Positions 20,556 through 36,935 of a stretch of 40,558 nucleotides of DNA are shown here, in pieces. Each line of letters begins with the position of its first letter. Position 1 is the stretch's first letter. The position numbers were made by a program, and so were the translations under genes. Source of the stretch: Ruminococcus sp. (GTDB lineage: Bacteria > Bacillota > Clostridia > Oscillospirales > Ruminococcaceae); the NCBI GenBank assembly GCA_024697545.1, contig JAILFN010000038.1, positions 1 to 40,558 of the forward strand. Direction: 5' to 3'. The notes beneath the pieces are model-generated. The model was not told where the DNA came from, made no database searches, and saw only the letters and a program-made list of their open reading frames with translations.

Positions 20556-20568
20556 TAATAACAGCAGT

Positions 20569-20615
20569 AAAAAGCCCGAAGGCAGGCGTAGCGGTCTGTT
20601 TTCGGGCTTTTTTTG
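20569..20615 (+). terminator. Terminator of the arabinose operon
   Basis: AAAAAGCCCGAA (20569-20580) pairs with TTCGGGCTTTTT (20601-20612), then more T. The rest of the 384-bp gap to the cellulase holds AT-rich regulatory DNA (promoter and inverted repeat listed separately); 20616-20800 shows nothing recognisable. Confidence 0.9.
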
Positions 20616-20822
20616 TGTATAAAATGTTACCGCACCGCATGACGGCGTTCGGGCTATGCAGACCGCTGCCGAACCGATATGACAGCCGCAAAAGGAACGA
20701 TACCACACTCTTCCCCGCCATGATCCGCCCTCGGGGAATATTCTTTTACTTTGTAATATGACCCCAAATTTAACCATAAATGATTTAGTTATCGGGAAGA
20801 ATATAATTAATTATTTTAGCTA

Positions 20823-20851
20823 TTGACATATGCCATTTGATGTAGTATATT
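20823..20851 (+). promoter_or_regulatory. Promoter of the GH9 cellulase gene
   Basis: TTGACA (20823-20828), 17-bp spacer, TATATT (20846-20851); 88-nt distance to ATG 20940. Confidence 0.78.
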
Positions 20852-20860
20852 TAAAAATGT

Positions 20861-20884
20861 AGGTATATTATATCTAATATGCCT
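20861..20884. promoter_or_regulatory. Inverted repeat at the cellulase transcription start, possible operator
   Basis: AGGTATATTA (20861-20870) and TAATATGCCT (20875-20884) form a 24-bp palindrome with one mismatched pair. It begins about 10 bp after the -10 box, a place suited to a repressor. The cognate regulator is unknown. Confidence 0.5.
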
Positions 20885-20939
20885 AAACAAGAAACCTTTT
20901 TTTGTTTTACTATTATCATTTCGAGAGGAGAATTGAAAA

Positions 20940-23949: not shown

Positions 23950-25026
23950 ATGTCATTGAAAAAGATAGCACAGATGACAGGCGTGTCCGTATCGACAGTC
24001 GGGCGTATACTCAACGACCCCTCACGAAAATGCTCCAGCGAGGAGCTTAGGCGACGGGTGCTTGATGCCGCCCGTGAGATAAACTATATCCCCAACGCCA
24101 GCGCACGCACGCTGCGCTCGGGCGGAGGCAGGAGCGAAGAGAGGATATATCACATAAACATACTGCTGACAAGGTTTGCACACGAGGCTGCCGACCCGTT
24201 CTATGACGAGCTTCTGATGCTTCTTGAAAGAGAGCTGAGGACTAACGGCTGCATCGTCGGGAACGTATGGCGCTGCGCCGAATTTTCCGACGACAAGGCG
24301 GTGCGCGGCGACAAACTCGGCGCACTTGTTGATGAGCTTTACGACAGCTGCGAGCACCGTTCGGACGGACTGATAATCGTAGGCAAGGTAACGGGCAGAT
24401 CATTAAAACAGCTGAAGACCAAGGAAAAGAACATAGTCTCGATCAACCGCAATTCCACAAACTACGAGGTTGACGAGGTGCTCTGCGACGGCAGCAGGAT
24501 CGCGGAAATGGCTGTCATGCACCTTGCAAAGCTTGGTCACACGAAGATAGGCTATGTCGGGGACTGCCACAACGAATCGCGCTTTACGGGATATCAGAAG
24601 ACGCTCTCACAGGGGCATCTTGAGGCGGACATCGACTATATCTTTGACACCGCCCCGAATGAAGCAAACGGCATCTCGGCTCTCGAATACTTCGCTTCCC
24701 TCGCCGACCCTCCCACAGGCATATACTGTGCGAACGATATCCTCGCGGTCGGCATGATAAAAGCGATGGGAAGGCGGAGGTCGCGCGGTTACAGCCCTTC
24801 GGTCATCTCGAGCGACGACATCGACGCGGCGCAGTACACCAAACCAATGCTCACAAGCGTTTCACTTCCGAAGAATGAGATGGTGCGGTTCGCTCTCATG
24901 CTGCTGCTTGACAGGATACGCGGCGGACACAAGATAATCTCACGCCTTGAGGTTCAGGGAACTCTTATAATACGCGAGAGCTGCCGACCTCTGCGGGAAC
25001 TGAACGAACCGGAATATTACATATGA
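23950..25026 (+). CDS. LacI-family transcription regulator of the sulfur/nitrogenase-like locus
   Basis: 358 residues. N-terminal LacI HTH (SLKKIAQMTGVSVSTVGRIL, about 2-21) with hinge helix region (about 48-57, NASARTLRSG), then a periplasmic-binding-type ligand domain with features such as YIFDTAPNEANG, GIYCANDILAVGM and VISSDDIDAAQYT. Ribosome site GGGAGTG before ATG 23950. Two copies of a TGATAACGTTATCA-like site precede it, one lies just after it before the mccB-like operon and three precede metY. That palindrome, with central CG, is typical of LacI-family operators, so this protein is the obvious candidate binder. LacI proteins usually sense sugars; here the genes controlled concern sulfur, and the ligand is unknown. 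Confidence 0.88.
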   Translation: MSLKKIAQMTGVSVSTVGRILNDPSRKCSSEELRRRVLDAAREINYIPNASARTLRSGGGRSEERIYHINILLTRFAHEAADPFYDELLMLLERELRTNGCIVGNVWRCAEFSDDKAVRGDKLGALVDELYDSCEHRSDGLIIVGKVTGRSLKQLKTKEKNIVSINRNSTNYEVDEVLCDGSRIAEMAVMHLAKLGHTKIGYVGDCHNESRFTGYQKTLSQGHLEADIDYIFDTAPNEANGISALEYFASLADPPTGIYCANDILAVGMIKAMGRRRSRGYSPSVISSDDIDAAQYTKPMLTSVSLPKNEMVRFALMLLLDRIRGGHKIISRLEVQGTLIIRESCRPLRELNEPEYYI

Positions 25027-25033
25027 ACCCTCG

Positions 25034-25047
25034 TGACAACGTTATCA
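25034..25047. promoter_or_regulatory. Candidate LacI-type operator O3, in front of the mccB operon
   Basis: TGACAACGTTATCA within the 16-bp GTGACAACGTTATCAC; one change from the palindrome. It ends exactly 10 bp before the -35 box, so its centre is near -52. Confidence 0.75.
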
Positions 25048-25057
25048 CATTTCGGTA

Positions 25058-25086
25058 TTGACAAACAGCGAAAATAGATGTAGAAT
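25058..25086 (+). promoter_or_regulatory. Promoter of the mccB-mccA-nifX-nifB operon
   Basis: TTGACA (25058-25063), 17-bp spacer, TAGAAT (25081-25086). Confidence 0.82.
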
Positions 25087-25145
25087 ATAGTCACATCATA
25101 AATCATAGTTTACTGATATGATAAATATGAAAGGCGATGGAGAAT

Positions 25146-26303
25146 ATGAGTTACAACAACATTGAAACAGCACTGATACACGGCGGCATTTCGACCGACG
25201 AACGCACGGGTGCGGTAAATGTGCCGATATATCAGACATCTACCTTCAAGCAGGACGGCCTCGGAAAGATGCGCGGCTACGAATATTCAAGAACGGGCAA
25301 CCCAACGAGAGAAGCTCTTGAAGCACTGATAGCAGAGCTTGAGGGCGGCTATGCGGGATTCGCTTTCGCGAGCGGACTTGCGGCAGAGACCGCGGTGCTG
25401 AGCCTGCTGAACACGGGCGACAGAGTCCTGATATCCTCCAATGTATACGGCGGAACATTCAGGCTCCTCGATCAGGTGTTCAACCACTTTGATATAAACT
25501 ACACCATCTCGGACACCGAGGATCCCGAGGCTTTTGAAAAGGACATCACCCCCGATGTAAAGGCGGTGCTGATAGAAAGCCCCGCAAACCCGCTGATGAC
25601 GATAACCGACATCCGCGCGGTAGCCGAGATAGCTCACAGGCACGGGCTGCTCGTGATCGTAGATAATACCTTCATGACCCCATACCTGCAAAGACCGCTG
25701 GAGCTTGGTGCTGATATCGTTGTCCACAGCGCGACAAAGTACCTCGGCGGACACAGCGACGTTGTCGCGGGACTTGCGGTGGTAAAGACCAAGGAGCTTG
25801 CCGAAAGGATAGCCTTCATACAGAACTCTACAGGCGGTGTTCTCCCGCCCTTCGACAGCTTCCTGCTCATGAGAGGTATAAAGACCCTCGGCGTAAGGCT
25901 TGACAGACACGTTGCAAACGCCGAAGCTGCTGCGAAGTATCTGAGCGGGCACAGCGCTGTCAAGAGCGTACACTACCCCGGACTTCCGACAGACAAGGGC
26001 TATGAGGTAAACAAGCGTCAGGCGAAAAACGGCGGCGTGATGATATCTTTTGAGCTGAAAGAGGGACACGACATAAACGTATTCTTCGAGAGCCTGAAGC
26101 TGGTGACACTTGCGGAAAGCTTAGGCGGCGTTGAATCGCTGGTATGCCACCCCTCAAGCATGACCCACGCTTCCATCCCCGAGGAGATACGCAAAAAGGT
26201 GGGCATTACCGACGGGCTGATAAGACTTTCGATAGGCATCGAGAATATAGAGGATATCCTCTCAGACATCGAGCAGGCTATCAGGAACAGCGAGGTGAAG
26301 TGA
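25146..26303 (+). CDS. Cys/Met-metabolism PLP enzyme, cystathionine gamma-lyase/synthase type (MccB-like)
   Basis: 385 residues from ATG 25146; an in-frame ATG at 25137 is only 2 nt from AAAGG, so the second start is preferred but not certain. Fold-type I PLP enzyme: YSRTGNPTREALE near the N-terminus, phosphate-binding ASGLAAETAVL, Asp in VDNTFMTPYLQ and the PLP lysine in SATKYLGGHSD. Paired with an MccA-like gene it most likely cleaves cystathionine to cysteine (reverse transsulfuration), but cystathionine gamma-synthase or homocysteine lyase activity cannot be excluded by eye. First gene of an operon that ends in cofactor genes of a nitrogenase-like enzyme; the next start is 1 nt after its stop. 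Confidence 0.85.
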   Translation: MSYNNIETALIHGGISTDERTGAVNVPIYQTSTFKQDGLGKMRGYEYSRTGNPTREALEALIAELEGGYAGFAFASGLAAETAVLSLLNTGDRVLISSNVYGGTFRLLDQVFNHFDINYTISDTEDPEAFEKDITPDVKAVLIESPANPLMTITDIRAVAEIAHRHGLLVIVDNTFMTPYLQRPLELGADIVVHSATKYLGGHSDVVAGLAVVKTKELAERIAFIQNSTGGVLPPFDSFLLMRGIKTLGVRLDRHVANAEAAAKYLSGHSAVKSVHYPGLPTDKGYEVNKRQAKNGGVMISFELKEGHDINVFFESLKLVTLAESLGGVESLVCHPSSMTHASIPEEIRKKVGITDGLIRLSIGIENIEDILSDIEQAIRNSEVK

Positions 26304-26304
26304 T

Positions 26305-27207
26305 ATGCTGTATGAGAATATGCACGACCTTATAGGTCACACTCCGCTTGTGAGGCTCAACAATATGGGGGTCTCCCCCGACGTACACATATATGCAAAG
26401 CTTGAAATGTATAACCCCTCGGGAAGCGTCAAAGACCGTGTCGGAGAGTACATGGTCAGGGCAGCCGAGCAAGAGGGCAGACTTAAAAAAGGCGGTACGA
26501 TAATAGAAGCGACCGCAGGCAACACGGGACTGGGTATAGCATTCGCAGCACTCGGAAGAGGTTACAGAGTGATATTCACCGTCCCTACAAAGTTCTCCGC
26601 CGAAAAGCAGGCGCTGATGCGCGCACTCGGTGCTGAGGTGATAAACACCCCCCGTTCCGAGGGAATGCTGGGTGCGGTGCGAAAAGCCGAAGAGCTGAAA
26701 GCGCAGATACCCGATTCCATCTCACTCGAACAGTTCAAGAACCCGAACAACCCCCTCTCTCACTACGAGGGTACGGGCAGGGAGATCTTTGAAGATCTGA
26801 ACGGCGAGATAGATTATCTTGTAGCGGGCGCGGGAAGCGGCGGCACATACTCGGGCGTTGTGAGATACCTTAAAGAGCACGGGCGTACTCAGGGCGTGCT
26901 CGCGGATCCCGAAGGCTCGACGATAGGCGGCGGCGAACACGCAGACTACAATATCGAAGGCATAGGCAATGATTTTATCCCCGACACGATGGATATATCG
27001 CTGGTGGACAAAGTAATAAAGATAAACGACGACGAAGCATTCTCGACGGTGCGCGACCTCGCAAGGAACGAGGGTATAATCGCGGGTTCGTCATCGGGTG
27101 CGGCAGTTGCGGCGGCATTAAAGCTCGCCAAAACAATTGATAAAGGAAATATCGTGGTCATACTCCCCGACCGGGGCGACAGATATTTCAGCACAGGATT
27201 GTGGTGA
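26305..27207 (+). CDS. Cysteine synthase/cystathionine beta-synthase family enzyme (MccA-like)
   Basis: 300 residues, fold-type II PLP enzyme. The PLP lysine is in NPSGSVKDR, the substrate loop is EATAGNTGLGIAFA and the phosphate cradle is GAGSGGTYSG. The EATAGNTG loop and the EGSTIGGGEH/GIGNDFIPD region follow the Bacillus MccA (YrhA) pattern, an O-acetylserine-dependent cystathionine beta-synthase, rather than the EPTSGNTG of CysK. Predicted reaction: homocysteine plus O-acetylserine to cystathionine, feeding the preceding enzyme. Plain O-acetylserine sulfhydrylase is the alternative. 1-nt gap to the previous gene; the next gene starts 4 nt after its stop. Confidence 0.82.
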   Translation: MLYENMHDLIGHTPLVRLNNMGVSPDVHIYAKLEMYNPSGSVKDRVGEYMVRAAEQEGRLKKGGTIIEATAGNTGLGIAFAALGRGYRVIFTVPTKFSAEKQALMRALGAEVINTPRSEGMLGAVRKAEELKAQIPDSISLEQFKNPNNPLSHYEGTGREIFEDLNGEIDYLVAGAGSGGTYSGVVRYLKEHGRTQGVLADPEGSTIGGGEHADYNIEGIGNDFIPDTMDISLVDKVIKINDDEAFSTVRDLARNEGIIAGSSSGAAVAAALKLAKTIDKGNIVVILPDRGDRYFSTGLW

Positions 27208-27211
27208 TCGA

Positions 27212-27583
27212 ATGATTTACAGGATAGCGCTTGCCAGCTCGGACGGCGAGCATATCGACAGTCACTTCGGTTCGGCAGAGCGGTTTTATATCGCAGAGCT
27301 TGACACCGAAAAGGAAGACTGTGATATCAAAGGATACATAGACGTCAAGCCCCCGTGCAGCGGCGGCTGGCACGAGGTATCAAAGTTTGAAGCGGTACTC
27401 ACGCAGCTCAGCGACGTATCTGCGATAGTTGCACAGAGGATAGGACCCGGTGCCTTGCAGTTCATAAGGGAACAGGGCAAAGCCGCCTATCAGATACCGC
27501 TCACGGCAGAGCAGGCGCTGTGTCTGCTGATAGAAGAAAAACAATGGGAGGTGGACAAATGGCGATCTCATACGAAGAGCTGA
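27212..27583 (+). CDS. NifX/NafY-type iron-molybdenum-cofactor-binding domain protein (first copy)
   Basis: 123 residues from ATG 27212, the first start after mccA; a longer frame from 27137 overlaps mccA. Small Nitro_FeMo-Co family domain: opening IALASSDGEHIDSHFGSAERF with the conserved His-Phe-Gly, and VSAIVAQRIGPGALQFI near the middle. The family binds or carries nitrogenase cofactor precursors such as NifB-co. It overlaps the NifB-like gene by 25 nt, so translation is coupled, which supports a role in handling the NifB product. A second related gene lies after nifK. Confidence 0.85.
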   Translation: MIYRIALASSDGEHIDSHFGSAERFYIAELDTEKEDCDIKGYIDVKPPCSGGWHEVSKFEAVLTQLSDVSAIVAQRIGPGALQFIREQGKAAYQIPLTAEQALCLLIEEKQWEVDKWRSHTKS

Positions 27584-28440
27584 CTACAAAGCACCCCTGC
27601 TTTGCAAAGGGGGAGAAAAACGGCGCGGGACGCATACATCTTCCGATAAGCCCGAGCTGCAATATAGAGTGCAGATTCTGCGAGAGAAGCTTCAACAGCT
27701 ATGAGGTAAGACCGGGTGTCAGCCGCACGGTGATAAAGCCCGAAGAAGCGATCGACGCGATACGCCGCGCACTTGACGTCTGTCCCGAAATACACGTCGC
27801 AGGCATAGCTGGTCCGGGAGACACGCTCGCAAGCCCCTACGCGCTGGAGACATTCAGGCTGATAAAGAATGAGTTCCCCGACCTCGTAAAGTGCATGAGC
27901 ACCAACGGTCTGCTGCTTGCCGAAAAGGCGCAGGAGATCATCGATGTGGGAGTTGATTCGCTGACAGTGACGGTGAATGCCGTAGACCCCGAGATAGAGG
28001 CTCAGCTGAACGACGGAATAGTCTGGCACGGAAAGCATTACACGGGCGTTGAAGCCGCAAAGATACTGATCGAGCAGCAGCTCAAAGGCATACGTCTGAT
28101 AGCAGGCTCGGGCATAACGTTGAAGGTCAACACGGTATTCGTCCCCGAGATAAACGGAGAGCACATCGAAACGGTGGCGAGGACGGTCGCGGAAGCGGGC
28201 GCGGACATTTACAACATCATCCCGCTTATCCCGAACCACAAGCTGAAGGACTGCCGCGAGCCCGACTGCATGGAGCTTGAACGGGCGATCCTCAGAGCCT
28301 CGAAATACATAGACGTATTCAGGCACTGCCAGCGCTGCCGCGCAGACGCCGTCGGCATACCCGGCGGAGAGGATTTCGGCGACAGGATATATATCGACCT
28401 CAAGAGACTGTCACGAAAGGATACATTCTCTCACGGTTGA
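27559..28440 (+). CDS. NifB-like radical SAM protein
   Basis: 293 residues from ATG 27559, which has GGGAGGTG just upstream. Radical SAM Cx3Cx2C cluster at Cys34, Cys38 and Cys41 (SCNIECRFC). NifB hallmarks are clear: HPCF near the N-terminus, GRIHLPISPSCNI, RPGVSR, AGIAGPGDTLA, and the C-terminal RHCQRCRADAVG with His256, Cys257 and Cys260. NifB makes the carbide-centred Fe8S9C precursor (NifB-co). The protein stops after the radical SAM domain with no fused NifX domain, as in compact NifB forms; the separate NifX-like gene immediately upstream replaces it. No nifE/N follows, so NifB-co itself or a direct derivative may be the final cofactor. Confidence 0.9.
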   Translation: MAISYEELTTKHPCFAKGEKNGAGRIHLPISPSCNIECRFCERSFNSYEVRPGVSRTVIKPEEAIDAIRRALDVCPEIHVAGIAGPGDTLASPYALETFRLIKNEFPDLVKCMSTNGLLLAEKAQEIIDVGVDSLTVTVNAVDPEIEAQLNDGIVWHGKHYTGVEAAKILIEQQLKGIRLIAGSGITLKVNTVFVPEINGEHIETVARTVAEAGADIYNIIPLIPNHKLKDCREPDCMELERAILRASKYIDVFRHCQRCRADAVGIPGGEDFGDRIYIDLKRLSRKDTFSHG

Positions 28441-28465
28441 TATAAAATACAACATAATATATATA
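28437..28465 (+). promoter_or_regulatory. Candidate internal promoter for nifHDK-like genes
   Basis: TTGATA (28437-28442, overlapping the nifB stop), 17-bp spacer, TATATA (28460-28465). Confidence 0.55.
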
Positions 28466-28473
28466 CCAATAAT

Positions 28474-28497
28474 TCAAATACCACATATGGTATTTGA
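28474..28497. promoter_or_regulatory. 24-bp palindrome in front of nifH-like gene
   Basis: Inverted repeat with halves TCAAATACCACA and TATGGTATTTGA, one mismatched pair. It lies just after the candidate -10 box, near +2 to +25, where a repressor would block transcription. Its sequence differs from the LacI-type operators, so a second regulator is implied. It could alternatively form an RNA hairpin in the leader. Confidence 0.6.
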
Positions 28498-28526
28498 TAT
28501 ATCAGTAAATATGAGAAAGTAGGTAA

Positions 28527-29390
<864 letters not shown>

Positions 29391-29415
29391 ACTCGGAAAA
29401 AATGTGGAGGTTTTT

Positions 29416-30882
29416 ATGAGCAAAGTAAATTTAGATATACCCGAGGTCGAGATACGCGAGATACGCCTCAACTCTATCACGGGATTTCAGGGAACTGCAA
29501 AGGAGCTTGTTTCAGCCTGCTCGGGCTGCGGCAAGCTGAAAGACAAAAACAGATCGTTCAGCCAATGTCTGGGCTGCGGCACTTCTAACGCCGCCTGTAC
29601 GTTGACGCTTATCCAGGATGCTGCGATAATCTCACACGGTCCCGTCGGCTGCTCCACCTGTCTGCATGAGTTCGCGTTCACATACAGGGTAAACGCATAT
29701 TTAAGACAGCTCGAACACCCGACACAGCGCAAGATCTTCTCGACGAACCTTGAAGAGAAGGACACCATCTACGGCGGCGGAAAGAAGCTTGAAGCTGCCA
29801 TTCATGAGGTATACAAGAGAGCCAAGCCCAAGGCGATATTCGTTATCACCACCTGTGCCGCGGGTATCATCGGCGATGACGTTGAGAGCGTTACCAACAA
29901 CGCCGAAAAGGAACTCGGCATACCTGTAGTAGCTGTCTTCTGCGAGGGCTTCCGCTCAAAGATGTGGACATCGGGCTTTGATGCAGGCTATCACGGCATT
30001 GCAAGAAAGATCATAAAGCCCGCCCGTCAGAAGAGGAACATCATAAACGTCATAAACTTCTGGGGCAGCGATATCTTCCGTGAGTGGTTCGCGGAATTCG
30101 GCTACGAGCCCAACTACATAACTCCCTTTGCAACGGTTGACAGCCTCAGCTATTCGAGCGAGGCGGCACTTACCGTTCAGGCGTGCTCGACCCTTGGAAG
30201 CTATCTGGGCGCGGCACTCGAACAGTCCTTCGGGGTGCCCGAGATACGCAATTCGCCCCCTTACGGCATCGCTCAGACCGACCGCTGGTTCAGAGAACTG
30301 GGTCAGATACTCGGCAAGGAAAAGGAAGTCGAGGAATTCCTCGCACGCAAGAAGGCGGAGTATATGCCTAAGATAGAAGCTCTCCGTGAAAAGCTCAAGG
30401 GCAAGACAGCTTACGTCACCGCTGGCGCATCGCACGGTCACTCGCTGCTGGCACTTCTCAAGGAGCTGGGCATGGAGACGCAGGGCGCTGCGATATTCCA
30501 TCACGACCCGCAGTATGACAACGAGGACGAGCGTGCAGATACCCTCAGACACACCGTTGAAGATTACGGCGATGTTCCCAACTACAACGTCTGCAACAAG
30601 CAGGAGTTTGAGCTTGTGAACGTGCTCAACCGCATCAAGCCCGACATTCTTCTTGCACGCCACGGCGGCATGACGCTCTGGGGCGCAAAGCTCGGCATAC
30701 CCTCGCTCCTTGTCGGCGACGAACACTTCGGCATGGGCTATGAGGGTCTTGTAAATTACGGTGAGCGTATACTTGAGACTATCGAGAACGATGAGTTCGT
30801 AAAGAACCTTGCAAAGCACTCCTCCAACCCCTATACCAAATGGTGGCTGGAGCAGGAACCGTATACATTCTTGGGTAAATAA
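29416..30882 (+). CDS. NifD-like catalytic subunit (methylthio-alkane reductase-like, MarD-type)
   Basis: 488 residues from ATG 29416 with GGAGG 5 nt upstream; the GTG at 29404 overlaps that site and is rejected. Candidate P-cluster ligands: Cys54 (LGCG), Cys79 (HGPVGCS) and Cys147 (ITTCAAGIIGDD), spaced much like Cys62/88/154 of Azotobacter NifD. Extra cysteines at 35, 38, 51, 61 and 82 surround them. Candidate cofactor ligands are Cys257 (VQACSTLGSYLG, like NifD Cys275) and His437 (GDEHFGMGYEGL, like NifD His442). This ligand set distinguishes it from BchN and CfbD, which lack a nitrogenase-type cofactor site. With methionine genes around it, the likely reaction is reductive C-S cleavage of small methylthio compounds. 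Substrate is inferred. Confidence 0.85.
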   Translation: MSKVNLDIPEVEIREIRLNSITGFQGTAKELVSACSGCGKLKDKNRSFSQCLGCGTSNAACTLTLIQDAAIISHGPVGCSTCLHEFAFTYRVNAYLRQLEHPTQRKIFSTNLEEKDTIYGGGKKLEAAIHEVYKRAKPKAIFVITTCAAGIIGDDVESVTNNAEKELGIPVVAVFCEGFRSKMWTSGFDAGYHGIARKIIKPARQKRNIINVINFWGSDIFREWFAEFGYEPNYITPFATVDSLSYSSEAALTVQACSTLGSYLGAALEQSFGVPEIRNSPPYGIAQTDRWFRELGQILGKEKEVEEFLARKKAEYMPKIEALREKLKGKTAYVTAGASHGHSLLALLKELGMETQGAAIFHHDPQYDNEDERADTLRHTVEDYGDVPNYNVCNKQEFELVNVLNRIKPDILLARHGGMTLWGAKLGIPSLLVGDEHFGMGYEGLVNYGERILETIENDEFVKNLAKHSSNPYTKWWLEQEPYTFLGK

Positions 30883-30896
30883 AGGAGAAAAAAGAT

Positions 30897-32237
30897 ATGG
30901 CAGGATTGATTGAACAGGAACGCTACACCTGTGCGATTGGCGCATTGCAGACGGTGGTAGCTATCCCCCGCGCCGTTCCGATACTTCACTCGGGTCCCGG
31001 CTGCGGCGTTATGATAAAGGGCTTCTTTGAGCGCTCGGCAGGCTATGCAGGCGGCGAGACTGCGCCCTGCACCAATTTCAGCGAAAAGGAAGTTGTATTC
31101 GGCGGCACCGACAGGCTCCGCAATATAATCAAGAACACCTACAAGGTCCTCGACACCGACTTGCAGGTGGTAGTTACGGGCTGTACCGCAGGTATAGTCG
31201 GCGATGACGTTGCAAGCGTCACCGATGAGTTCCTCTACGAAGAGGACAGACCCATCGTACACGTTGAGACATCGGGCTTCAAGTCAAACAACTATGTTTC
31301 TCATTCGGCAGTCGTCAATGCGATAATCGACCAGTATGTCAGCCGCTTTGAAGACGACAACCCCGCAAGAAGCGAAAAGAACCTTGTAAACGTCATCGCT
31401 TCAATACCCTATCAGGATCAGTTCTGGAAGGGCAACCTGAAGGAATACAAGAGACTTCTCGAAGGACTGGGACTTAAAGTCAATATCCTCTTCGGACCCC
31501 ATTCGGGCGGCGTAAAGGAATGGCAGACGATCCCGAAGGCTAACTTCAACGTATTCATATCCCCCTGGTACGGTGAGCCTATCGTCAAGAACCTTGAGAG
31601 AAGATACAAGCAGCCTTACTTCAAGTTCGGTTATCTCCCCATCGGTGCGAACGAGACTACCAGGTTCTTGAACGGCGTGGTGGATTTCGCCCTCGAACAG
31701 GGTGCGGAGATCGACGAGAAGAAGGCAAGAAAGTTCATCGCGGAAGAGGAAAAGGCTTACTACGAAGAGCTTGACAACCTCGCGACCTTCCTGCTCGAAT
31801 TCCGCTACGGTCTTCCCTCCTATGTGCATATCCTGCACGATGCAGGCTACGTTACGGGTCTGACCAAGTTCCTGCTGCACGAGACAGGTCTTGTTCCTAA
31901 GGAGCAGTTCATCGTAGACAACGTGCCGAAGAAGTATCAGGAGCAGATAGAAGCCGACATCAAGTCAGCCTCCGACAAGCGCGAGATACCCGTATACTTC
32001 GATCCCGACGCAGGCGCTATGCAGGACGTTATCAGAGGCATCAGACATAAGGGAAAAGGTCTTATCCTCGGCAGCGGCTGGGATAAGGAGCTTGCAGCTG
32101 AGATAGACGCAGACTTCCTCTCTATAGCCTGTCCTACTCCCTATCGCATCGTGCTGACGACAAACTATGTCGGCTATACGGGCGGTCTCAGAGTGATCGA
32201 GGATATCTACAACACCGCACTTGCCGCTTACAAGTAA
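30897..32237 (+). CDS. NifK-like beta subunit (MarK-type)
   Basis: 446 residues; ribosome site AAAGGAGAA before ATG 30897, 14 nt after nifD. The three P-cluster cysteines are present: Cys12 (YTCAIGALQ), Cys36 (SGPGCGVM) and Cys96 (TGCTAGIVGDDV), matching Cys70/95/153 of Azotobacter NifK after removal of its long N-terminal extension. The protein starts directly at the first cysteine motif, as in short NifK forms. It should pair with the NifD-like protein as an alpha2beta2 core. An intrinsic terminator follows 16 nt after the stop. Confidence 0.9.
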   Translation: MAGLIEQERYTCAIGALQTVVAIPRAVPILHSGPGCGVMIKGFFERSAGYAGGETAPCTNFSEKEVVFGGTDRLRNIIKNTYKVLDTDLQVVVTGCTAGIVGDDVASVTDEFLYEEDRPIVHVETSGFKSNNYVSHSAVVNAIIDQYVSRFEDDNPARSEKNLVNVIASIPYQDQFWKGNLKEYKRLLEGLGLKVNILFGPHSGGVKEWQTIPKANFNVFISPWYGEPIVKNLERRYKQPYFKFGYLPIGANETTRFLNGVVDFALEQGAEIDEKKARKFIAEEEKAYYEELDNLATFLLEFRYGLPSYVHILHDAGYVTGLTKFLLHETGLVPKEQFIVDNVPKKYQEQIEADIKSASDKREIPVYFDPDAGAMQDVIRGIRHKGKGLILGSGWDKELAAEIDADFLSIACPTPYRIVLTTNYVGYTGGLRVIEDIYNTALAAYK

Positions 32238-32253
32238 CGGAAGCGATACAATG

Positions 32254-32282
32254 ATCTCCCGTCATACGGCGGGAGATTTTTT
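32254..32282 (+). terminator. Intrinsic terminator/attenuator after nifK-like gene
   Basis: ATCTCCCG (32254-32261) and CGGGAGAT (32270-32277) with T5 after it; the next gene begins 17 nt later, so partial read-through is likely. Confidence 0.85.
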
Positions 32283-32298
32283 GAAAGGAATGATACTC

Positions 32299-32631
32299 AT
32301 GAGCAAGATAGCCATTGCAACCTCAGACGGCTTTACCGTCAACGAGCACTTCGGCCACGCAAAATTCTTCCGCATCTATGAGCTTGGCGAAACAGACTAT
32401 ACCTTTCTCGAGGTGCGCGACGCGGTAGCTGCCTGCCAGCACAGCCTCGGGCACGACACCACCCGCTTTGACAAAATCATAGAGCTGCTTTCAGACTGCG
32501 ATGCCCTGCTTGTGCAGAAGATCGGCGAGGGCGCGGCAGCCTACCTTATATCAAGAAACGTAAGGGTGTTCGAGGTAAGCGGCATGATCGACGCCGTGCT
32601 GAAAAAGTTTATTGAAAGCAAGCTTGTATAA
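32299..32631 (+). CDS. NifX/NafY-type cofactor-binding domain protein (second copy)
   Basis: 110 residues from ATG 32299 (GAAAGGA upstream; longer frame from 32221 overlaps nifK and the terminator). Same small domain as the gene at 27212: IAIATSDGFTVNEHFGHAKFFRI with conserved His-Phe-Gly-His, and CDALLVQKIGEGAAAYL. A cysteine in VAACQHSLGHD may bind metal. It probably binds the cofactor or its precursor for insertion into, or protection of, the apo NifDK-like protein. Separated from nifK by a terminator-like hairpin, so expected at lower level. Confidence 0.83.
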   Translation: MSKIAIATSDGFTVNEHFGHAKFFRIYELGETDYTFLEVRDAVAACQHSLGHDTTRFDKIIELLSDCDALLVQKIGEGAAAYLISRNVRVFEVSGMIDAVLKKFIESKLV

Positions 32632-32702
32632 GATATACCGACCGAAAAAACGTACTGTGATGATACATCTTACTTAACTAACAAGAAAAGGAGAGCGATA
32701 CT

Positions 32703-33605
32703 ATGCCGATAAAACTGAAAGAAAAGCTGCCCGTTATCGAAAGGCTCAAAAAGGAAAACATCTTCGCGATGACAGAAGAACGTGCCATGCATCAGGATAT
32801 CAGAGAGCTCAAGATCGCGGTGCTGAACATTATGCCCGACAAGGAAGATACCGAGCAGCAGATACTTCGTCTGCTCTCCAACTCACCGCTTCAGGTCGAG
32901 GTAACGTTCATAAGGCTCGTGACGCACAAGTACAAGAACACATCCGCGGATTACCTTATCCGCAACTATGTTCCCTTCTATCAGATAGAGCACAAATATT
33001 TCGACGGACTGATAATCACAGGCGCACCCGTTGAGAAGCTGCAATATGAAGACGTTGACTACTGGGGCGAGCTGTCGGCGATATTTGAATGGAGCAGGAT
33101 CCACGTCACCTCTACGCTTTACCTCTGCTGGGCGGCACAGGCGGGTCTTTACTACCACTACGGCGTGCCGAAATATGACCTTGACCGCAAGCTCTCGGGC
33201 ATATTCGAGCATACCGTGCAGGACGCGGGCAATGAGCTTGTGCGCGGCTTTGACAAGCATTTCTATGCTCCGCATTCAAGATACACGGGCATCAGCACCG
33301 AAGAGATCGGCAAGATCTCCGAGCTTTCGGTAGTCGCAGCTTCTGAGACTGCGGGGGCGTATATCGTCACCGACGGCGGCAAGAACATTTTTGTAAACGG
33401 CCACCCCGAGTACGATCTCTACCGCCTTGCCGAGGAATATATCCGCGACACCGACAAGGGGCTCTCGCCCGACATACCCGCAAACTACTTCCCCGACGAC
33501 GACCCCTCACGCGAGCCCGTCAGCCGCTGGCTTTCGGCTTCGAGCCTGCTGTTCTCAAACTGGCTGAACTATTTTGTATATCAGATAACACCCTATGAGT
33601 TTTAA
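32703..33605 (+). CDS. metA: Homoserine O-acetyltransferase of the MetA type
   Basis: 300 residues; ribosome site AAGGAGAG before ATG 32703. Catalytic Cys142 (LYLCWAAQAG), His234 and Glu236 (NGHPEYD) are present. Residue 111 is Glu (TGAPVEKL), the residue reported to select acetyl-CoA over succinyl-CoA in MetA proteins, where E. coli MetA has Gly. The product is therefore predicted to be O-acetylhomoserine, the substrate of the MetY-type enzyme encoded 430 bp downstream. It lies 71 bp after the second nifX-like gene without an obvious promoter, so it may belong to the nifHDK transcript. Confidence 0.94.
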   Translation: MPIKLKEKLPVIERLKKENIFAMTEERAMHQDIRELKIAVLNIMPDKEDTEQQILRLLSNSPLQVEVTFIRLVTHKYKNTSADYLIRNYVPFYQIEHKYFDGLIITGAPVEKLQYEDVDYWGELSAIFEWSRIHVTSTLYLCWAAQAGLYYHYGVPKYDLDRKLSGIFEHTVQDAGNELVRGFDKHFYAPHSRYTGISTEEIGKISELSVVAASETAGAYIVTDGGKNIFVNGHPEYDLYRLAEEYIRDTDKGLSPDIPANYFPDDDPSREPVSRWLSASSLLFSNWLNYFVYQITPYEF

Positions 33606-33614
33606 GGCAATACA

Positions 33615-33655
33615 TGATCCCCGTGCGGGCAGGCATCTGCGCGGGGATCATTTTT
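33615..33655 (+). terminator. Terminator after metA
   Basis: TGATCCCCG (33615-33623) pairs with CGGGGATCA (33642-33650), then T5. The 431-bp gap 33606-34036 holds this terminator, three LacI-type operators and the metY promoter; no gene is seen in it. Confidence 0.88.
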
Positions 33656-33749
33656 CCGCCCGAAAGCGCAGCGCGAGCTCATGACGCGCGGGAACGATAA
33701 ACTGTATTTATCGGATGATATAGAGCGGGTCTATAACGCCCGCCGTTTG

Positions 33750-33763
33750 TGATAACGTATTCT
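33750..33763. promoter_or_regulatory. Candidate LacI-type operator O4 (weak)
   Basis: TGATAACGTATTCT: perfect left half, degenerate right half. Centre 90 bp upstream of O5. Confidence 0.4.
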
Positions 33764-33839
33764 TATCGTGCCGCCGAAATTTTATCAAATAACGCCGCAC
33801 GCCGTGCAAAAGCACCCCGAAACCCGCAGAATACCGAAC

Positions 33840-33853
33840 TGACAACGTTATCT
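33840..33853. promoter_or_regulatory. Candidate LacI-type operator O5
   Basis: TGACAACGTTATCT, 12 of 14 positions of TGATAACGTTATCA. Its first twelve bases are the same as O3. Centre 105 bp (about ten helical turns) upstream of O6. Confidence 0.65.
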
Positions 33854-33944
33854 CCATTTGCCCGCGGCAGGCTCCTGCACGGGCTGTCTGTCCGCATTAT
33901 AAGGGCTGATATCTGTGATATGCGGGCAGATGTATCACGCCGCG

Positions 33945-33958
33945 AGATAACGTTATCA
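33945..33958. promoter_or_regulatory. Candidate LacI-type operator O6, in front of metY
   Basis: AGATAACGTTATCA, 13 of 14 positions of the palindrome. It ends exactly 10 bp before the -35 box, the same geometry as O3 in front of the mccB operon. Confidence 0.75.
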
Positions 33959-33968
33959 GCTTTTTTCA

Positions 33969-33997
33969 TTGACCTTTTTCAAATTTTGCGGTAAACT
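33969..33997 (+). promoter_or_regulatory. Promoter of metY
   Basis: TTGACC (33969-33974), 17-bp spacer, TAAACT (33992-33997). Confidence 0.7.
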
Positions 33998-34036
33998 TTA
34001 ATCATCGAAAAAACAATACCGAAAGGAAAGATCATC

Positions 34037-35326
34037 ATGGCAGAACTCAGATTTGACACAAAGAAGATCAAAGCAGGATATGACCCCAAAAGCAACAATC
34101 AGGCGATCTCACCTCCCATCTATCAGACCGCGGCTTACGACTTCAGAGACACCGAGCACGCACAGAACCTTTTCACCTATAAAGAGGAAGGCTATCTTTA
34201 CACCCGCGTAGGCAACCCGACTGTCACATACTTCACCGAGCGCGTCAAGGCACTTGACGGTGCAAAGAATGCCGTTGCGGTCGGCTCGGGAATGGCGGCT
34301 ATCAGTTACACGCTCCTGAACCTTGCGGTCGGCGGCGGAACGATACTTGCATCGCCTTATCTCTACGGCGGCACGATCGACGCTTTCGACAGGCTCTTCC
34401 CCGAGTTCGGAGTAAAGATAAAGATCACCGATGCGATACTCGATCCCGAAAAGCTTGCAGATGAGATCACCGATGACGTTAAGGCGATATATGTAGAGTC
34501 GATAAGCAACCCCAACGCTTACCTGCTCGACATCGACGCTATATCGGAAGCGGCTCACAAGAAGGGCGTGCCTGTAGTAGTTGACAACACGCTTGCCACC
34601 CCCTACCTCTACCGCCCCTTTGAGCACGGCGCGGATATAGTTGTTTACTCCGCCACCAAGGCGCTCACGGGTCACGGCAACATCATCGCGGGCGTTATCC
34701 TCGATAACGGCGACATGAGCCTTTACACAAAGGAGCGCTACCCGCAGTTCTATGAGCCTATCGTAATGCTCGGCGGCAAGTCCCCTGCCGATATATTCCC
34801 AGGCAATCTGTTCATATTCAGACTGATACTCGTCTACCTCAATCTGCTGGGCGCAGCGCTCTCCCCGCAGGACGCTTACCTCGGCATCATCGGTCTTGAA
34901 ACGCTTTCCGAGCGCGTGGCAAAGCAGTCAAAGAATGCTGCAAAGATCGCCGCATACCTCGAAAGCTCCCCCGCTGTTGAGTGGGTACGTCACCCGAGCC
35001 TTGAAAGCTACAAGTTCAAAGCTCTCGCCGACAAGTATCTTACAAACGGCGGCGGCGGAGTGCTTTCCTTCGGCATAAAGGGCACTCCCGAGCAGGAAGC
35101 CGAATTCCTCAACAATATAAAGCTGTTCCACTATCATGTAAACTTAGGCGATGCACGTTCGCTGATCGTTGACTCGCCGAACACCACCCATTCCGAGCTG
35201 AACGATGAGGAGTTCGTTCTTGCGGATATCCCGAAGAACCTGATACGCATCTCCGCAGGCCTTGAGGACGCCGATGATCTTATCGCAGACCTCGAGCAGG
35301 CGTTCAAGGCGGCAAGGCTGCTCTGA
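34037..35326 (+). CDS. metY: O-acetylhomoserine sulfhydrylase (aminocarboxypropyltransferase)
   Basis: 429 residues, the length typical of MetY and longer than MetB/MetC. Fold-type I PLP enzyme: YTRVGNPTVTYFTERV, phosphate-binding GSGMAAISYTLL, VDNTLATPYLYRPFEHG and the PLP lysine in YSATKALTGHG; ISAGLEDADDLIADLEQA closes the C-terminus. It joins O-acetylhomoserine with sulfide to give homocysteine or with methanethiol to give methionine directly; the second reaction is the one that would use the product of a methylthio-alkane reductase. Ribosome site GAAAGGAAAG before ATG 34037. It has its own promoter preceded by three LacI-type operators and its own terminator. Confidence 0.94.
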   Translation: MAELRFDTKKIKAGYDPKSNNQAISPPIYQTAAYDFRDTEHAQNLFTYKEEGYLYTRVGNPTVTYFTERVKALDGAKNAVAVGSGMAAISYTLLNLAVGGGTILASPYLYGGTIDAFDRLFPEFGVKIKITDAILDPEKLADEITDDVKAIYVESISNPNAYLLDIDAISEAAHKKGVPVVVDNTLATPYLYRPFEHGADIVVYSATKALTGHGNIIAGVILDNGDMSLYTKERYPQFYEPIVMLGGKSPADIFPGNLFIFRLILVYLNLLGAALSPQDAYLGIIGLETLSERVAKQSKNAAKIAAYLESSPAVEWVRHPSLESYKFKALADKYLTNGGGGVLSFGIKGTPEQEAEFLNNIKLFHYHVNLGDARSLIVDSPNTTHSELNDEEFVLADIPKNLIRISAGLEDADDLIADLEQAFKAARLL

Positions 35327-35387
35327 TGACAACACCGACAGCTGTGCAGACTGTATCTCCAAATCAGTGACTTTTATATATTTTCCC

Positions 35388-35423
35388 CCGAGACCGTTCA
35401 ATAAGGCGGTCCCGGTTTTTTTT
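35388..35423 (+). terminator. Terminator after metY
   Basis: CCGAGACCG (35388-35396) and CGGTCCCGG (35407-35415) pair with one mismatch, followed by T8. Confidence 0.88.
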
Positions 35424-35451
35424 GCCAGTTCATTATTTTTTAAGAAAATAC

Positions 35452-35480
35452 TTGAAATTACAAAAAATATGTGCTATAAT
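35452..35480 (+). promoter_or_regulatory. Promoter of GAF-GGDEF gene
   Basis: TTGAAA (35452-35457), 17-bp spacer, TATAAT (35475-35480). Confidence 0.8.
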
Positions 35481-35519
35481 AAAAAATGGAAAATATTTCA
35501 AATCTTAGGAGGGTGGATC

Positions 35520-36935
35520 ATGGACTTTCAATCAGTCGTTGACCACATAGGCGTTGCAGCCTGTGTTGTTTCTGTCGAAAAGCTTAAAGACGGCGGTATC
35601 GGAAAGTTCCGAATTGTTTGCGGCAACCGTGCGTATACCGACAGCATCGAAAGACCGATGAACGGCGTGGTGATGCTGAAAAGAAAATTTGTGCCGAACT
35701 CAGAGTATACCGACTATATGACCCGTGATATGAATTTTGAGGATTCCTGCTATCAGGCAGCCGTACTCAAAAAATGTCTTCACGCTTATGTTCATCCTGA
35801 AAGATATGATGTCTGGTTCGATCTGTCATTCCTGCCGCTGACACCCGATGAAGGCGATCTCTGTTACTGTCTTTATATAATGGAGTTCAGCATCAGACCC
35901 AACGCCAAGAGGATGTCTACCATATCTTCCGATATCGCAACATCTGTCCTTGAGACCTGTATCAAGCTCAGAAGTCCCGATGACCTTAAAAAAACGATGC
36001 ACGAGGTCTGCGATGACATACGCGAGCTTTGCGGCTCTGAGCATTGCTGTATCTTTCTTATGGACACCGAAAAGCGCACCTGCTCGGTACTGGCAGAAGC
36101 GTTTTCAAAGGACACGGAGCTTATTTCCATGAAGAATTATGTCGATGACAAGTTCTATGACATAGCCGACAGCTGGAAGGATACGATCTCGGGCAGCAAC
36201 TGCATAATTGCCAAGAACGAGCACGACTGGGCTATCGTAAAAGAGCGTAATCCCGCCTGGTATGACTCGATCAGCAAAGCAGGCGGCAGGTCGATAGTTC
36301 TCTTCCCGCTTGAATTCAAGGGCGAGCTGCTCGGGTACATATGGGCGATAAATTTCAACGCCGATGCAGCGGATACCATCAAGGAGACGATAGAGCTTAC
36401 CGCCTTCGTTCTGGCTTCCGAGATATACAGCTACCGTTCGATCGAAAGGCTGCACGTTTTAAGCTCGCGCGATATGCTTACGGGCGTCATGAACCGAAAC
36501 GAGATGAACTCCTACGTCGATTCCCTTGCCGACCGCACAGACCACAGGACGGCAGGCGTGGTGTTTGTCGATCTGAACGGGCTGAAGGTCGTAAACGACA
36601 GCAAGGGACACCACGCGGGAGACAGGCTGCTCAGGAACGCGGCGAGAGTGCTGAAGACCGTTTTCTCACCGAATGAGATATTCCGTGCGGGCGGCGATGA
36701 GTTCGTTGTTATAAGCACCGACATCACCGAGGACGAGCTTGCCGTCAGAGCCGAGCAGATCAGGAAGATCTCAAAAGAGTATGATAACCTCGTGTTTGCG
36801 GTAGGAACTGCATTTGCCGACGACACTGCGGATATCCGCACAGCTCTCCGCATCGCCGACGAGCGTATGTATGAGGACAAAAGGCGCTATTACGAGCTGC
36901 ACCCCGAGAAAAAGCGCAGCACATCAGCCGTCTGA
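35520..36935 (+). CDS. Cytoplasmic diguanylate cyclase with PAS-like and GAF-like regions
   Basis: 471 residues from ATG 35520 (TAGGAGGGTGG upstream; the frame extends upstream to 35262 but passes through the metY terminator). No membrane segment. Residues 1-130 look PAS-like and 145-300 GAF-like, with several Cys (CGSEHCCIFL) that might sense metal or redox. The GGDEF domain (about 310-465) is complete: LTGVMNRNEM, metal site VDLNGLKVVND, GHHAGDRLLR and GGDEF at 391-395. No RxxD inhibitory site. Predicted to make c-di-GMP, unlike the degenerate dCache protein at 8650. No functional link to the sulfur genes is evident. Confidence 0.88.
   Translation: MDFQSVVDHIGVAACVVSVEKLKDGGIGKFRIVCGNRAYTDSIERPMNGVVMLKRKFVPNSEYTDYMTRDMNFEDSCYQAAVLKKCLHAYVHPERYDVWFDLSFLPLTPDEGDLCYCLYIMEFSIRPNAKRMSTISSDIATSVLETCIKLRSPDDLKKTMHEVCDDIRELCGSEHCCIFLMDTEKRTCSVLAEAFSKDTELISMKNYVDDKFYDIADSWKDTISGSNCIIAKNEHDWAIVKERNPAWYDSISKAGGRSIVLFPLEFKGELLGYIWAINFNADAADTIKETIELTAFVLASEIYSYRSIERLHVLSSRDMLTGVMNRNEMNSYVDSLADRTDHRTAGVVFVDLNGLKVVNDSKGHHAGDRLLRNAARVLKTVFSPNEIFRAGGDEFVVISTDITEDELAVRAEQIRKISKEYDNLVFAVGTAFADDTADIRTALRIADERMYEDKRRYYELHPEKKRSTSAV

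What the first reader, a model, noticed from the sequence alone, without database searches (positions are those of the whole stretch)
25034..35326. Nitrogenase-like enzyme locus embedded in methionine/cysteine genes (Mar-like system in a Ruminococcus-type Firmicute)
Seen: nifB-, nifH-, nifD- and nifK-like genes with two nifX-like genes, flanked by mccB/mccA-like genes on one side and metA and metY on the other, all on one strand. Known: the methylthio-alkane reductase of Rhodospirillum rubrum is a nitrogenase-like enzyme that releases methanethiol from methylthio compounds and feeds methionine synthesis through MetY. Inferred: this locus lets an anaerobic fibre degrader scavenge organic sulfur (such as dimethyl sulfide or methylthioethanol) and would also release hydrocarbons such as methane or ethylene. 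Whether this lineage is already described I cannot check.
Basis: partly seen in the sequence, partly recalled or inferred. Interest (0 to 1): 0.93.

Follow-up and report, generated by a model that had tools for sequence, protein, structure and literature searches.

The report
Nitrogenase-like sulfur-scavenging operon
A Ruminococcus-type gut bacterium carries a nitrogenase-like gene cluster set among cysteine and methionine genes that likely strips sulfur from organic compounds rather than fixing nitrogen, and its relative in Endomicrobium proavitum, reported to fix nitrogen, lies among the same sulfur genes.

Summary
In detail: ten same-strand genes (25137-35326) read mccB, cysK, nifX-like, nifB-like, nifH, nifD-like, nifK-like, nifX-like, metA, metY. 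D and K match the solved R. rubrum methylthio-alkane reductase (MAR) far better than any nitrogenase and keep its cluster ligands. (1) D lies not in the characterised MarD clade but in a sister clade (66 of 66 aligned members lack MAR's His194) that contains NfaD of Endomicrobium proavitum, cited in print as a working group IV nitrogenase. (2) E. proavitum's only D/K pair sits in a matching sulfur operon. Met/Cys genes lie near D in 43 of 43 clade loci with at least 5 kb on each side, 0 of 19 control windows and 0 of 7 nif loci. (3) The reductase here is nitrogenase-type NifH (79% to C. pasteurianum NifH, 51% to MarH); E. proavitum's is MarH-type: partners have been swapped. No NifEN, NifV or sulfite reductase was found in this 87% complete genome. 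Best reading: an Fe-only nitrogenase-like C-S bond reductase releasing methanethiol or sulfide for MetY and CysK. Substrate and activity are untested; N2 fixation is the main rival.

The parts
23950..25026 (+). LacI-family regulator gene, probable local regulator
   Evidence: PF00356 and PF13377; its relatives are immediately upstream of mccB in 18 of 25 cases in Ruminococcus-group loci
25137..26303 (+). mccB-like cystathionine gamma-lyase/synthase family PLP enzyme
   Evidence: PF01053 5.6e-154; best NCBIfam NF005810 556 bits, cut-off 594 not reached; 63% to the E. proavitum operon copy
26305..27207 (+). cysK/mccA-like cysteine or cystathionine beta-synthase
   Evidence: PF00291 1.3e-74; TIGR01136 342 bits, cut-off 344 not reached; 59% to the E. 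proavitum copy
27212..27583 (+). NifX-like cofactor-binding protein 1
   Evidence: PF02579 7.3e-16
27559..28440 (+). NifB-like radical SAM protein (no NifX domain), predicted maker of the Fe8S9C precursor cluster
   Evidence: TIGR01290 263 bits, below cut-off 344, over the radical-SAM part; NifB structure 7jma 7.9e-78 with HPCF, CNIxCxFC, KCMSTNG and CxxCRADA stretches shared; the only match of NifB's radical SAM part in the genome
28533..29390 (+). NifH-type iron protein (reductase)
   Evidence: TIGR01287 461.5 bits over cut-off 394; 1cp2 NifH 467 bits vs R. rubrum MarH 283; tree; 79% vs 51% identity
29416..30882 (+). D subunit, NfaD/MarD-like catalytic alpha chain (predicted ligands Cys257, His416; also Arg415, Trp184, His362; Met183 where MAR has His194; numbered from the ATG at 29416, one lower than, whose sequence began one codon earlier)
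30897..32237 (+). K subunit, NfaK/MarK-like beta chain with the three P-cluster cysteines (12, 36, 96)
   Evidence: 9d9u_C 8.6e-113 with the cysteines aligned; Cys positions
32299..32631 (+). NifX-like cofactor-binding protein 2
   Evidence: PF02579 2.5e-22; TIGR02663 57 bits, below cut-off
32703..33605 (+). metA, homoserine O-acetyl/succinyltransferase
   Evidence: PF04204 1.3e-127; NF047918 MetA_acetyl 437 bits, cut-off 460.5 not reached
34037..35326 (+). metY, O-acetylhomoserine sulfhydrylase
   Evidence: TIGR01326 457 bits, cut-off 495 not reached; 52% to E. proavitum MetY

Best explanation
The operon encodes a nitrogenase-superfamily enzyme of the NfaDK clade, sister to methylthio-alkane reductase, that is predicted to break carbon-sulfur bonds of organic sulfur compounds by ATP-driven reduction and would hand the released methanethiol or sulfide to the co-encoded MetY and CysK. 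Shown by sequence: MAR-type cluster ligands and all six P-cluster cysteines, a NifB-like maturase with two NifX-like proteins, a NifH-type reductase, the four sulfur amino-acid genes, and a sulfur-gene setting in the clade loci examined. Inferred: NifB and the NifX-like proteins build and carry an Fe8S9C cluster; NifH passes electrons through the P-cluster to it; a small thioether is cut to a thiol (or to sulfide) plus a hydrocarbon or reduced carbon fragment; MetA and MetY make methionine or homocysteine from it, and MccB with CysK move sulfur to cysteine. Most likely use: sulfur scavenging in anaerobes, many of which lack assimilatory sulfite reductase. The exact substrate is open and may differ from that of R. 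rubrum MAR, because the pocket is rebuilt.
For: Best PDB matches of D and K are R. rubrum MAR; the AlphaFold2 model fits MAR 9fmg_A at query-normalised TM 0.90 against 0.71 or less for the nitrogenase chains among the 50 rows shown (the alignment held MAR sequences, so this is not independent). Cys270, His429, Arg428, Trp195, Phe199 and His375 of MAR are kept in 66 of 66 clade II sequences; PMC12552129 gives their roles. Met/Cys genes lie within 10 kb in 43 of 43 clade II loci with at least 5 kb on each side (and by the control's own rule; 66 or 67 of all 80) and in 18 of 18 loci of a further set on the clade II side, four of which repeat loci of the 80, against 0 of 19 control windows and 0 of 7 nif loci. 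E. proavitum has the same gene set apart from metA. Own genome: PF00148 genes at three places only, no NifV over cut-off, one NifB. NIR_SIR sulfite reductase was not found in 12 of 17 clade II genomes, own included.
Against: No activity, expression or substrate data. His194 of MAR is V/I/M in 66 of 66 clade II sequences, Gln74 is M, T, V or A, Tyr353 is His, so the chemistry could differ. E. proavitum, in the same clade, is reported to incorporate 15N2 (PMC9147875; PMC11257099; original paper not held). A homocysteine methyltransferase domain (PF02574, as in methionine synthase) is present in 17 of 17 genomes, so methanethiol is not the only route to methionine. Sulfite reductase is present in 5 of 17. 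An SsuABC-like transporter in 22 of 43 loci could point to a sulfonate. One clade II locus, L109, has two ammonium-transporter-like stretches 6 to 9 kb downstream of D. Own genome is 87% complete, so absences there are provisional.
Confidence: 0.7

Rival explanations
1. A minimal Fe-only nitrogenase: the NfaDK clade fixes N2, as reported for E. proavitum, and the sulfur genes supply or respond to the sulfur demand of cluster building.
For: E. proavitum's single D/K pair is in this clade (100 support, 70 rows; only two PF00148 matches in its genome) and the strain is reported to incorporate 15N2. The window's NifH passes the NifH equivalog cut-off. L109, a clade II locus, has ammonium-transporter-like genes nearby.
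Against: Nitrogenase residues Val70, Gln191, His195 and Gly424 (roles) are C, W, F and R here, and the predicted His ligand sits in MAR's loop I, not in the loop of nitrogenase His442. No NifEN or NifV found. No P-II gene found by BLAST in 101 sequences including the window. Met/Cys genes in 43 of 43 loci vs 0 of 7 nif loci. R. rubrum MAR, with the same ligands, does not reduce N2 (abstract and section 4 of PMC12552129).
Confidence: 0.15
2. An ordinary methylthio-alkane reductase: same substrates as in R. rubrum (dimethyl sulfide, ethyl methyl sulfide, 2-methylthioethanol), releasing methane, ethane or ethylene. A narrower form of the best explanation.
For: Same ligands and fold, NifB-like partner, MetY.
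Against: Sister clade, 41-42% identity; His194 and Gln74 changed, loop I around the His ligand rewritten in 66 of 66; a clade I D occurs in 8 of the 16 class-level genomes with a D on the clade II side, which suggests different jobs.
Confidence: 0.2
3. An isethionate-reductase-like enzyme (Isr) that releases sulfite from a sulfonate brought in by the SsuABC-like transporter.
For: SsuABC-like transporter genes in 22 of 43 loci and in E. proavitum; Isr is a nitrogenase-like C-S enzyme (PMC11423573, abstract and passages).
Against: IsrD keeps one of three P-cluster cysteines and IsrB is not NifB-like; here all three are kept (66 of 66) and the radical SAM partner is NifB-like. Sulfite would be of no use in the 12 of 17 genomes without a found NIR_SIR gene. 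No such transporter gene is among the ten genes of the window locus.
Confidence: 0.07
4. A cofactor scaffold, or a reductase for selenium or another small molecule, not a sulfur-supply enzyme.
For: NifX-like proteins and NifB also go with NifEN scaffolds (recalled); the published mlp clusters link such genes to methyl-sulfur and methyl-selenium metabolism (PMC10418091, passages).
Against: The only other D/K pair of this type in the genome is on C103; the sulfur setting is constant in the loci examined.
Confidence: 0.05

Closest known systems
NfaDK, group IV-A nitrogenase-like enzyme of Endomicrobium proavitum
   Same: Same D clade, 70% D and 64% K identity, same neighbours metY, mccB, cysK, nifB, two nifX; same state at 14 of the 16 tabulated D positions, Met for Ile at 194 among the differences
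   Different: E. proavitum pairs it with a MarH-type reductase (78% to R. rubrum MarH) and an SsuABC-like transporter; the window has a NifH-type reductase, metA, a LacI-family gene and no transporter gene in the operon
Methylthio-alkane reductase MarBHDK of Rhodospirillum rubrum
   Same: Cluster ligands, Arg-His hallmark, P-cluster cysteines, NifB-type partner, predicted fold
   Different: Sister clade; His194, Gln74 and loop I changed; reductase not MarH-type
MarHDK-like group IV-A genes near mlp methyltransferase clusters of anaerobes (PMC10418091)
   Same: Reported in print as lying near sulfur genes such as MetY and CysK (passages and a figure legend); the paper names H. thermocellum, and A. 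thermocellus D is in the same clade here
   Different: mlp methyltransferases were not searched for here; the passages seen give no residue or reductase-type analysis
Isethionate reductase IsrBHDK of Rhodobacter capsulatus (PMC11423573)
   Same: Nitrogenase-like C-S enzyme for sulfur supply
   Different: One of three D-side P-cluster cysteines, radical SAM partner not NifB-like
Mo-nitrogenase NifHDK of clostridia
   Same: NifH 78-80% identical to NifH of nif loci in the same family and of C. pasteurianum
   Different: D and K distant, no NifEN/NifV, no P-II genes seen

Membership tests
Methylthio-alkane reductase (R. rubrum MarHDK) | Cluster ligands Cys270 and His429 with Arg428 (loop I) | tested here: met
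   Cys257, His416, Arg415 in the window; 66 of 66 clade II
Methylthio-alkane reductase (R. rubrum MarHDK) | Six P-cluster cysteines | tested here: met
   D: 66/91/158 kept in 66 of 66; K of the window: cysteines 12, 36, 96
Methylthio-alkane reductase (R. rubrum MarHDK) | Full active-site lining, including His194 and Gln74 | tested here: not met
   Met183 and Thr62; position 194 is H in 20 of 20 clade I, V/I/M in 66 of 66 clade II
Methylthio-alkane reductase (R. rubrum MarHDK) | D inside the MarD clade of R. rubrum | tested here: not met
   Sister clade
Methylthio-alkane reductase (R. rubrum MarHDK) | MarH-type reductase | tested here: not met
   NifH-type
Methylthio-alkane reductase (R. rubrum MarHDK) | Releases methanethiol and hydrocarbon from methylthio compounds | not testable with these tools
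   needs purified enzyme
NfaDK (group IV-A) | D in one clade with E. proavitum NfaD | tested here: met
   70-row clade, SH-aLRT 100
NfaDK (group IV-A) | Operon make-up of E. proavitum | tested here: met
   metY, D, K, nifX, mccB, cysK, nifB, nifX, H in both; order differs, and each has genes that the other lacks
NfaDK (group IV-A) | NfaH in one clade with MarH (PMC9147875) | tested here: not met
   window H is NifH-type; E. proavitum H is 78% to MarH
NfaDK (group IV-A) | N2 reduction (reported for E. proavitum) | not testable with these tools
   original paper not held
Mo-nitrogenase NifHDK | D and K with NifD/NifK | tested here: not met
   D separated at 100 support; best PDB match of K is MarK; no K tree was built
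Mo-nitrogenase NifHDK | NifE, NifN and NifV in the genome | tested here: not met
   genome 87% complete
Isethionate reductase IsrBHDK | Only one P-cluster cysteine in D and a non-NifB radical SAM partner | tested here: not met
   three cysteines, NifB-like partner; feature

The most novel reading that the evidence does not exclude
The whole NfaDK (group IV-A) clade, including the Endomicrobium proavitum enzyme cited as a group IV nitrogenase, is a family of sulfur-assimilation C-S reductases with its own substrate; in Ruminococcus and most sampled Clostridia it has captured a canonical NifH as its electron donor, so a true-looking nifH there marks sulfur scavenging, and the reported 15N2 incorporation is a side activity or needs another source.
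Probability: 0.45. Interest if true: 0.87.

Novelty: new variant of a known kind. Interest (0 to 1): 0.73.

Why it matters
It puts two lines of published work in direct conflict and makes the conflict testable: group IV-A enzymes as nitrogenases (E. proavitum) against the same enzymes in sulfur operons with MAR-type active sites. It also gives one concrete source of possible false diazotroph signals. Pseudo-nifH is common in Clostridia (abstract and passages of PMC8597730), but here the NifH-type gene has D/K neighbours whose relatives are named nitrogenase wherever a source gives a name in the list, so even a check for adjacent nifD and nifK could pass. The missing nifEN and the D-subunit residues give it away. 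If the enzyme works as proposed, rumen and other anaerobic fibre degraders without sulfite reductase have an ATP-costly route to organic sulfur that may release small hydrocarbons.

Tried and rejected
Riboswitch or other RNA control: no Rfam match at gathering score in the locus, in L014 or in L015; one weak chance-like hit at E 0.13. Plain MarHDK orthology: rejected on tree, H type and His194. Isr: rejected on cysteines and NifB. NifH left over from a lost nitrogenase: not excluded as an origin. Of 32 NifH-type rows from MAR-type loci in the tree, 29 form one clade (97/95) beside NifH of nif loci, but three (L140, L142, L145) fall elsewhere among NifH, so the recruitment need not be a single event. 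A different His ligand (DEH near residue 437): my first guess from recall, dropped after reading PMC12552129. Print: searches for methylthio-alkane reductase, the same plus Ruminococcus, marBHDK, nitrogenase-like plus Ruminococcus or methanethiol, Ruminococcus albus plus nitrogenase, pseudo-nifH, rumen nifH, C. thermocellum plus nitrogenase, E. proavitum plus nitrogenase found no paper joining Ruminococcus to MAR (0 papers); North 2020 and Zheng 2016 are not held and are known here only through citations. Results that weaken the story: PF02574 in 17 of 17 genomes; sulfite reductase in 5 of 17; ammonium-transporter-like stretches near one clade II locus, L109 (only one such query was used, so others may have been missed); only 4 of 11 clade I loci looked at had Met/Cys genes, two of them loci shared with clade II.

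Rows dropped: 37 of 80 loci left out of the 43 of 43 count for short flanks (66 of 80 overall by gene clusters; 67 of 80 by the control's rule). MetN-like hits were ignored as generic ATPases in the control windows. Ruminococcus near-copies and D-like rows under 36% identity were left out of the tree. One class-level fragment (G437, 52%) was not placed. Three protein searches listed only their best 120 hits.

Full report
What is there. The window holds one same-strand block: mccB-like, cysK-like, nifX-like, nifB-like, nifH, D, K, nifX-like, metA, metY (25137-35326). From mccB to metA the neighbouring genes overlap or lie at most 92 bp apart; metY follows after 431 bp. A LacI-family gene lies upstream and is kept directly before mccB in 18 of 25 cases in Ruminococcus-group loci.

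What D and K are. Against solved structures the best match of D is R. rubrum MAR (448 bits; best nitrogenase 143) and of K likewise (381 against 70). A predicted model of D (mean pLDDT 84.7; 21-sequence alignment that included MAR sequences, so not independent) fits MAR at query-normalised TM 0.90 and the nitrogenase chains among the 50 rows shown at 0.71 or less. In a 62-row tree, D lies far from NifD and NifE (100) and in a 30-row clade (99) beside the 17-row clade of R. rubrum MarD (100). A 107-row tree repeats this: a 66-row clade II with support 100 and a 20-row clade I with support 100. These are quick trees with SH-aLRT support only.

The active site. PMC12552129 (sections 4, 8, 9, 12 and part of 5) names Cys270 and His429 as cluster ligands, Arg428 with His429 as a possible MAR hallmark, and His194, Trp195 and His375 around one belt sulfur. 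In 66 of 66 clade II sequences (a few rows are identical) Cys270, Arg428, His429, Trp195, Phe199, His375 and D-side P-cluster cysteines 66, 91 and 158 are kept. His194 is H in 20 of 20 clade I but V, I or M in 66 of 66 clade II; Tyr353 is His in 66 of 66; of the loop I positions tabulated after the His ligand, 430, 432, 433 and 436 are each fixed in clade II at another residue than the commonest of clade I. So the cluster and its holder look like MAR, but the pocket is rebuilt.

The reductase. The window's H passes the NifH equivalog cut-off, matches C. pasteurianum NifH at 467 bits and R. rubrum MarH at 283, with 79% and 51% identity. In a 50-row tree with bootstraps it lies on the NifH side (98/94), within a 29-row clade (97/95) made up of reductases from MAR-type loci, beside NifH of nif loci; three more NifH-type rows from MAR-type loci fall outside that clade. 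R. rubrum MarH is in another clade (100/98). Of the 80 clade II loci, 47 have a NifH-type reductase on the locus, 7 a MarH-type one, and 26 none, many of these on short contigs. On the D tree of all clades the reductase type changes at least five times (57 labelled rows). D/K has kept its sulfur setting while changing its electron donor.

The setting. Met/Cys genes (MetY, MccB, CysK, MetI, MetQ or MetA) lie within 10 kb of D in 43 of 43 loci with at least 5 kb on each side, by gene clusters and again by the tblastn rule used for the controls; overall 66 and 67 of 80. Nineteen of the 43 are Ruminococcus-group near relatives and 24 are not. Controls: 0 of 19 windows of 20 kb from a genome that holds the operon (G113; Fisher p 2e-16, which ignores relatedness) and 0 of 7 nif loci, three of them only 8 to 9 kb long and one (L183) recognised by NifE. 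A further set of 18 loci on the clade II side gave 18 of 18, four of them repeating loci of the 80. An SsuABC-like transporter occurs in 22 of 43, MetI/MetQ genes in 13 of 43 (names, where the SsuA_fam and MetQ scores are below cut-off). A BLAST search with P-II genes from ten regions found none in 101 sequences; the one hit, in L109, came from a neighbouring ammonium transporter frame, so L109 has ammonium-transporter-like stretches 6 to 9 kb downstream of D.

The Endomicrobium link. A third protein search returned E. proavitum's nitrogenase alpha subunit, P0242. It is 70% identical to the window's D and lies inside clade II (70 rows, 100), with MAR's ligands and a clade II pocket. I found the genome among relatives of the genome of L095: G572 has a contig of 1,588,979 bp, the published chromosome length (whole text of PMC4505116). 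It holds one D and one K only. The order there is metY, SsuA-like, SsuC-like, ATPase, D, K, nifX, mccB, cysK, nifB, nifX, H, and H is 78% identical to R. rubrum MarH. PMC9147875 (part 1 of section 3.5) reports 15N2 incorporation by this species and calls the enzyme NfaDK; [quoted passage not shown] The original paper is not held. PMC10418091 (passages) already notes group IV-A MarHDK-like genes near sulfur genes in other anaerobes, so the sulfur link of the group is not new; what I add is the E. proavitum operon, the fixed residue pattern and the reductase swap.

Genome background. Own genome (87% complete): eight PF00148 matches, two here, two on C103, four on C28; one match of NifB's radical SAM part; no NifV over cut-off. 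The C103 pair is 54% identical to the window's D, keeps the ligands and follows metN-, metI- and metQ-like genes directly with no H or B beside it, so the window's H and B may serve both pairs (inference). NIR_SIR sulfite reductase was not found in 12 of 17 clade II genomes, own, three R. albus records and E. proavitum among them, which argues for a product at the thiol or sulfide level. PF02574, the homocysteine methyltransferase domain of methionine synthase, is present in 17 of 17, so methanethiol need not be the only product.

How common. Within the family, 4 of 148 genomes (own included) hold a copy at 96% or more. At class level, 24 of 391 genomes match at E 1e-60; 16 (own included) have a D on the clade II side, 8 of these also a clade I D; one fragment was not placed. 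Co-residence suggests that the two clades do different jobs.

Verdict. A real, conserved sulfur operon around a nitrogenase-like enzyme. It works most likely like MAR, but D is a member of the NfaDK clade and not of the R. rubrum MarD clade. The claim of methane or ethylene release is untested. The sharpest open question it raises is whether group IV-A enzymes fix N2 at all.

Noticed in passing
L015 (own genome contig C28) 770-12872: HydE (547 bits), then two nitrogenase-like HDK sets, then hypF (728 bits), hypD (401 bits) and a hypE-like gene (AIRS domains), with no [NiFe]-hydrogenase large subunit found in the 87% complete genome. Nitrogenase-like reductases beside CN/CO-ligand maturases may make an unknown metal cofactor.
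   Followed up: partly
L014 (own genome contig C103) 657-5793: metN-, metI-, metQ-like genes directly followed by a second D/K pair (54% to the window's D) without its own H or B; its D groups with a plasmid-borne copy of Chlorohelix on the clade II side, outside strict clade II.
   Followed up: partly
L127 1775-12782: A plasmid of Candidatus Chlorohelix allophototropha carries genes annotated nifB and nifH for nitrogen fixation that are a MAR-like set with a MetY-type gene and ABC transporter genes close by.
   Followed up: partly
L074, L098, L141: Loci with a clade I and a clade II-side D/K pair close together (Ruminococcus sp. UBA7013, Pectinatus cerevisiiphilus, G356), natural pairs for comparing substrates.
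   Followed up: partly
L115 782, L151 1154, L154 4738: Further D-like genes at 28-31% identity next to MAR-type loci: another nitrogenase-like branch of unknown role.
   Followed up: no
L151, L156, L157 (also L023, L024): A third D clade with the Arg-His pair but no Cys73; L151, L156 and L157 lie beside NifH-type and CysK-like genes, two of them also beside NifB.
   Followed up: no
P0251, P0264: Treponema primitia and a Treponema endosymbiont carry clade II D proteins with E. proavitum's pocket residues; nifH surveys of termite guts might count such loci as diazotrophs.
   Followed up: no
L109 17467-21400: Two ammonium-transporter-like stretches downstream of a clade II operon in Sinanaerobacter, the one nitrogen-related neighbour seen.
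   Followed up: no
window 19122-23636 and 35262-36935: Upstream lie an L-arabinose isomerase and a GH9 cellulase with CBM3, downstream a GGDEF protein: a fibre degrader's surroundings.
   Followed up: partly
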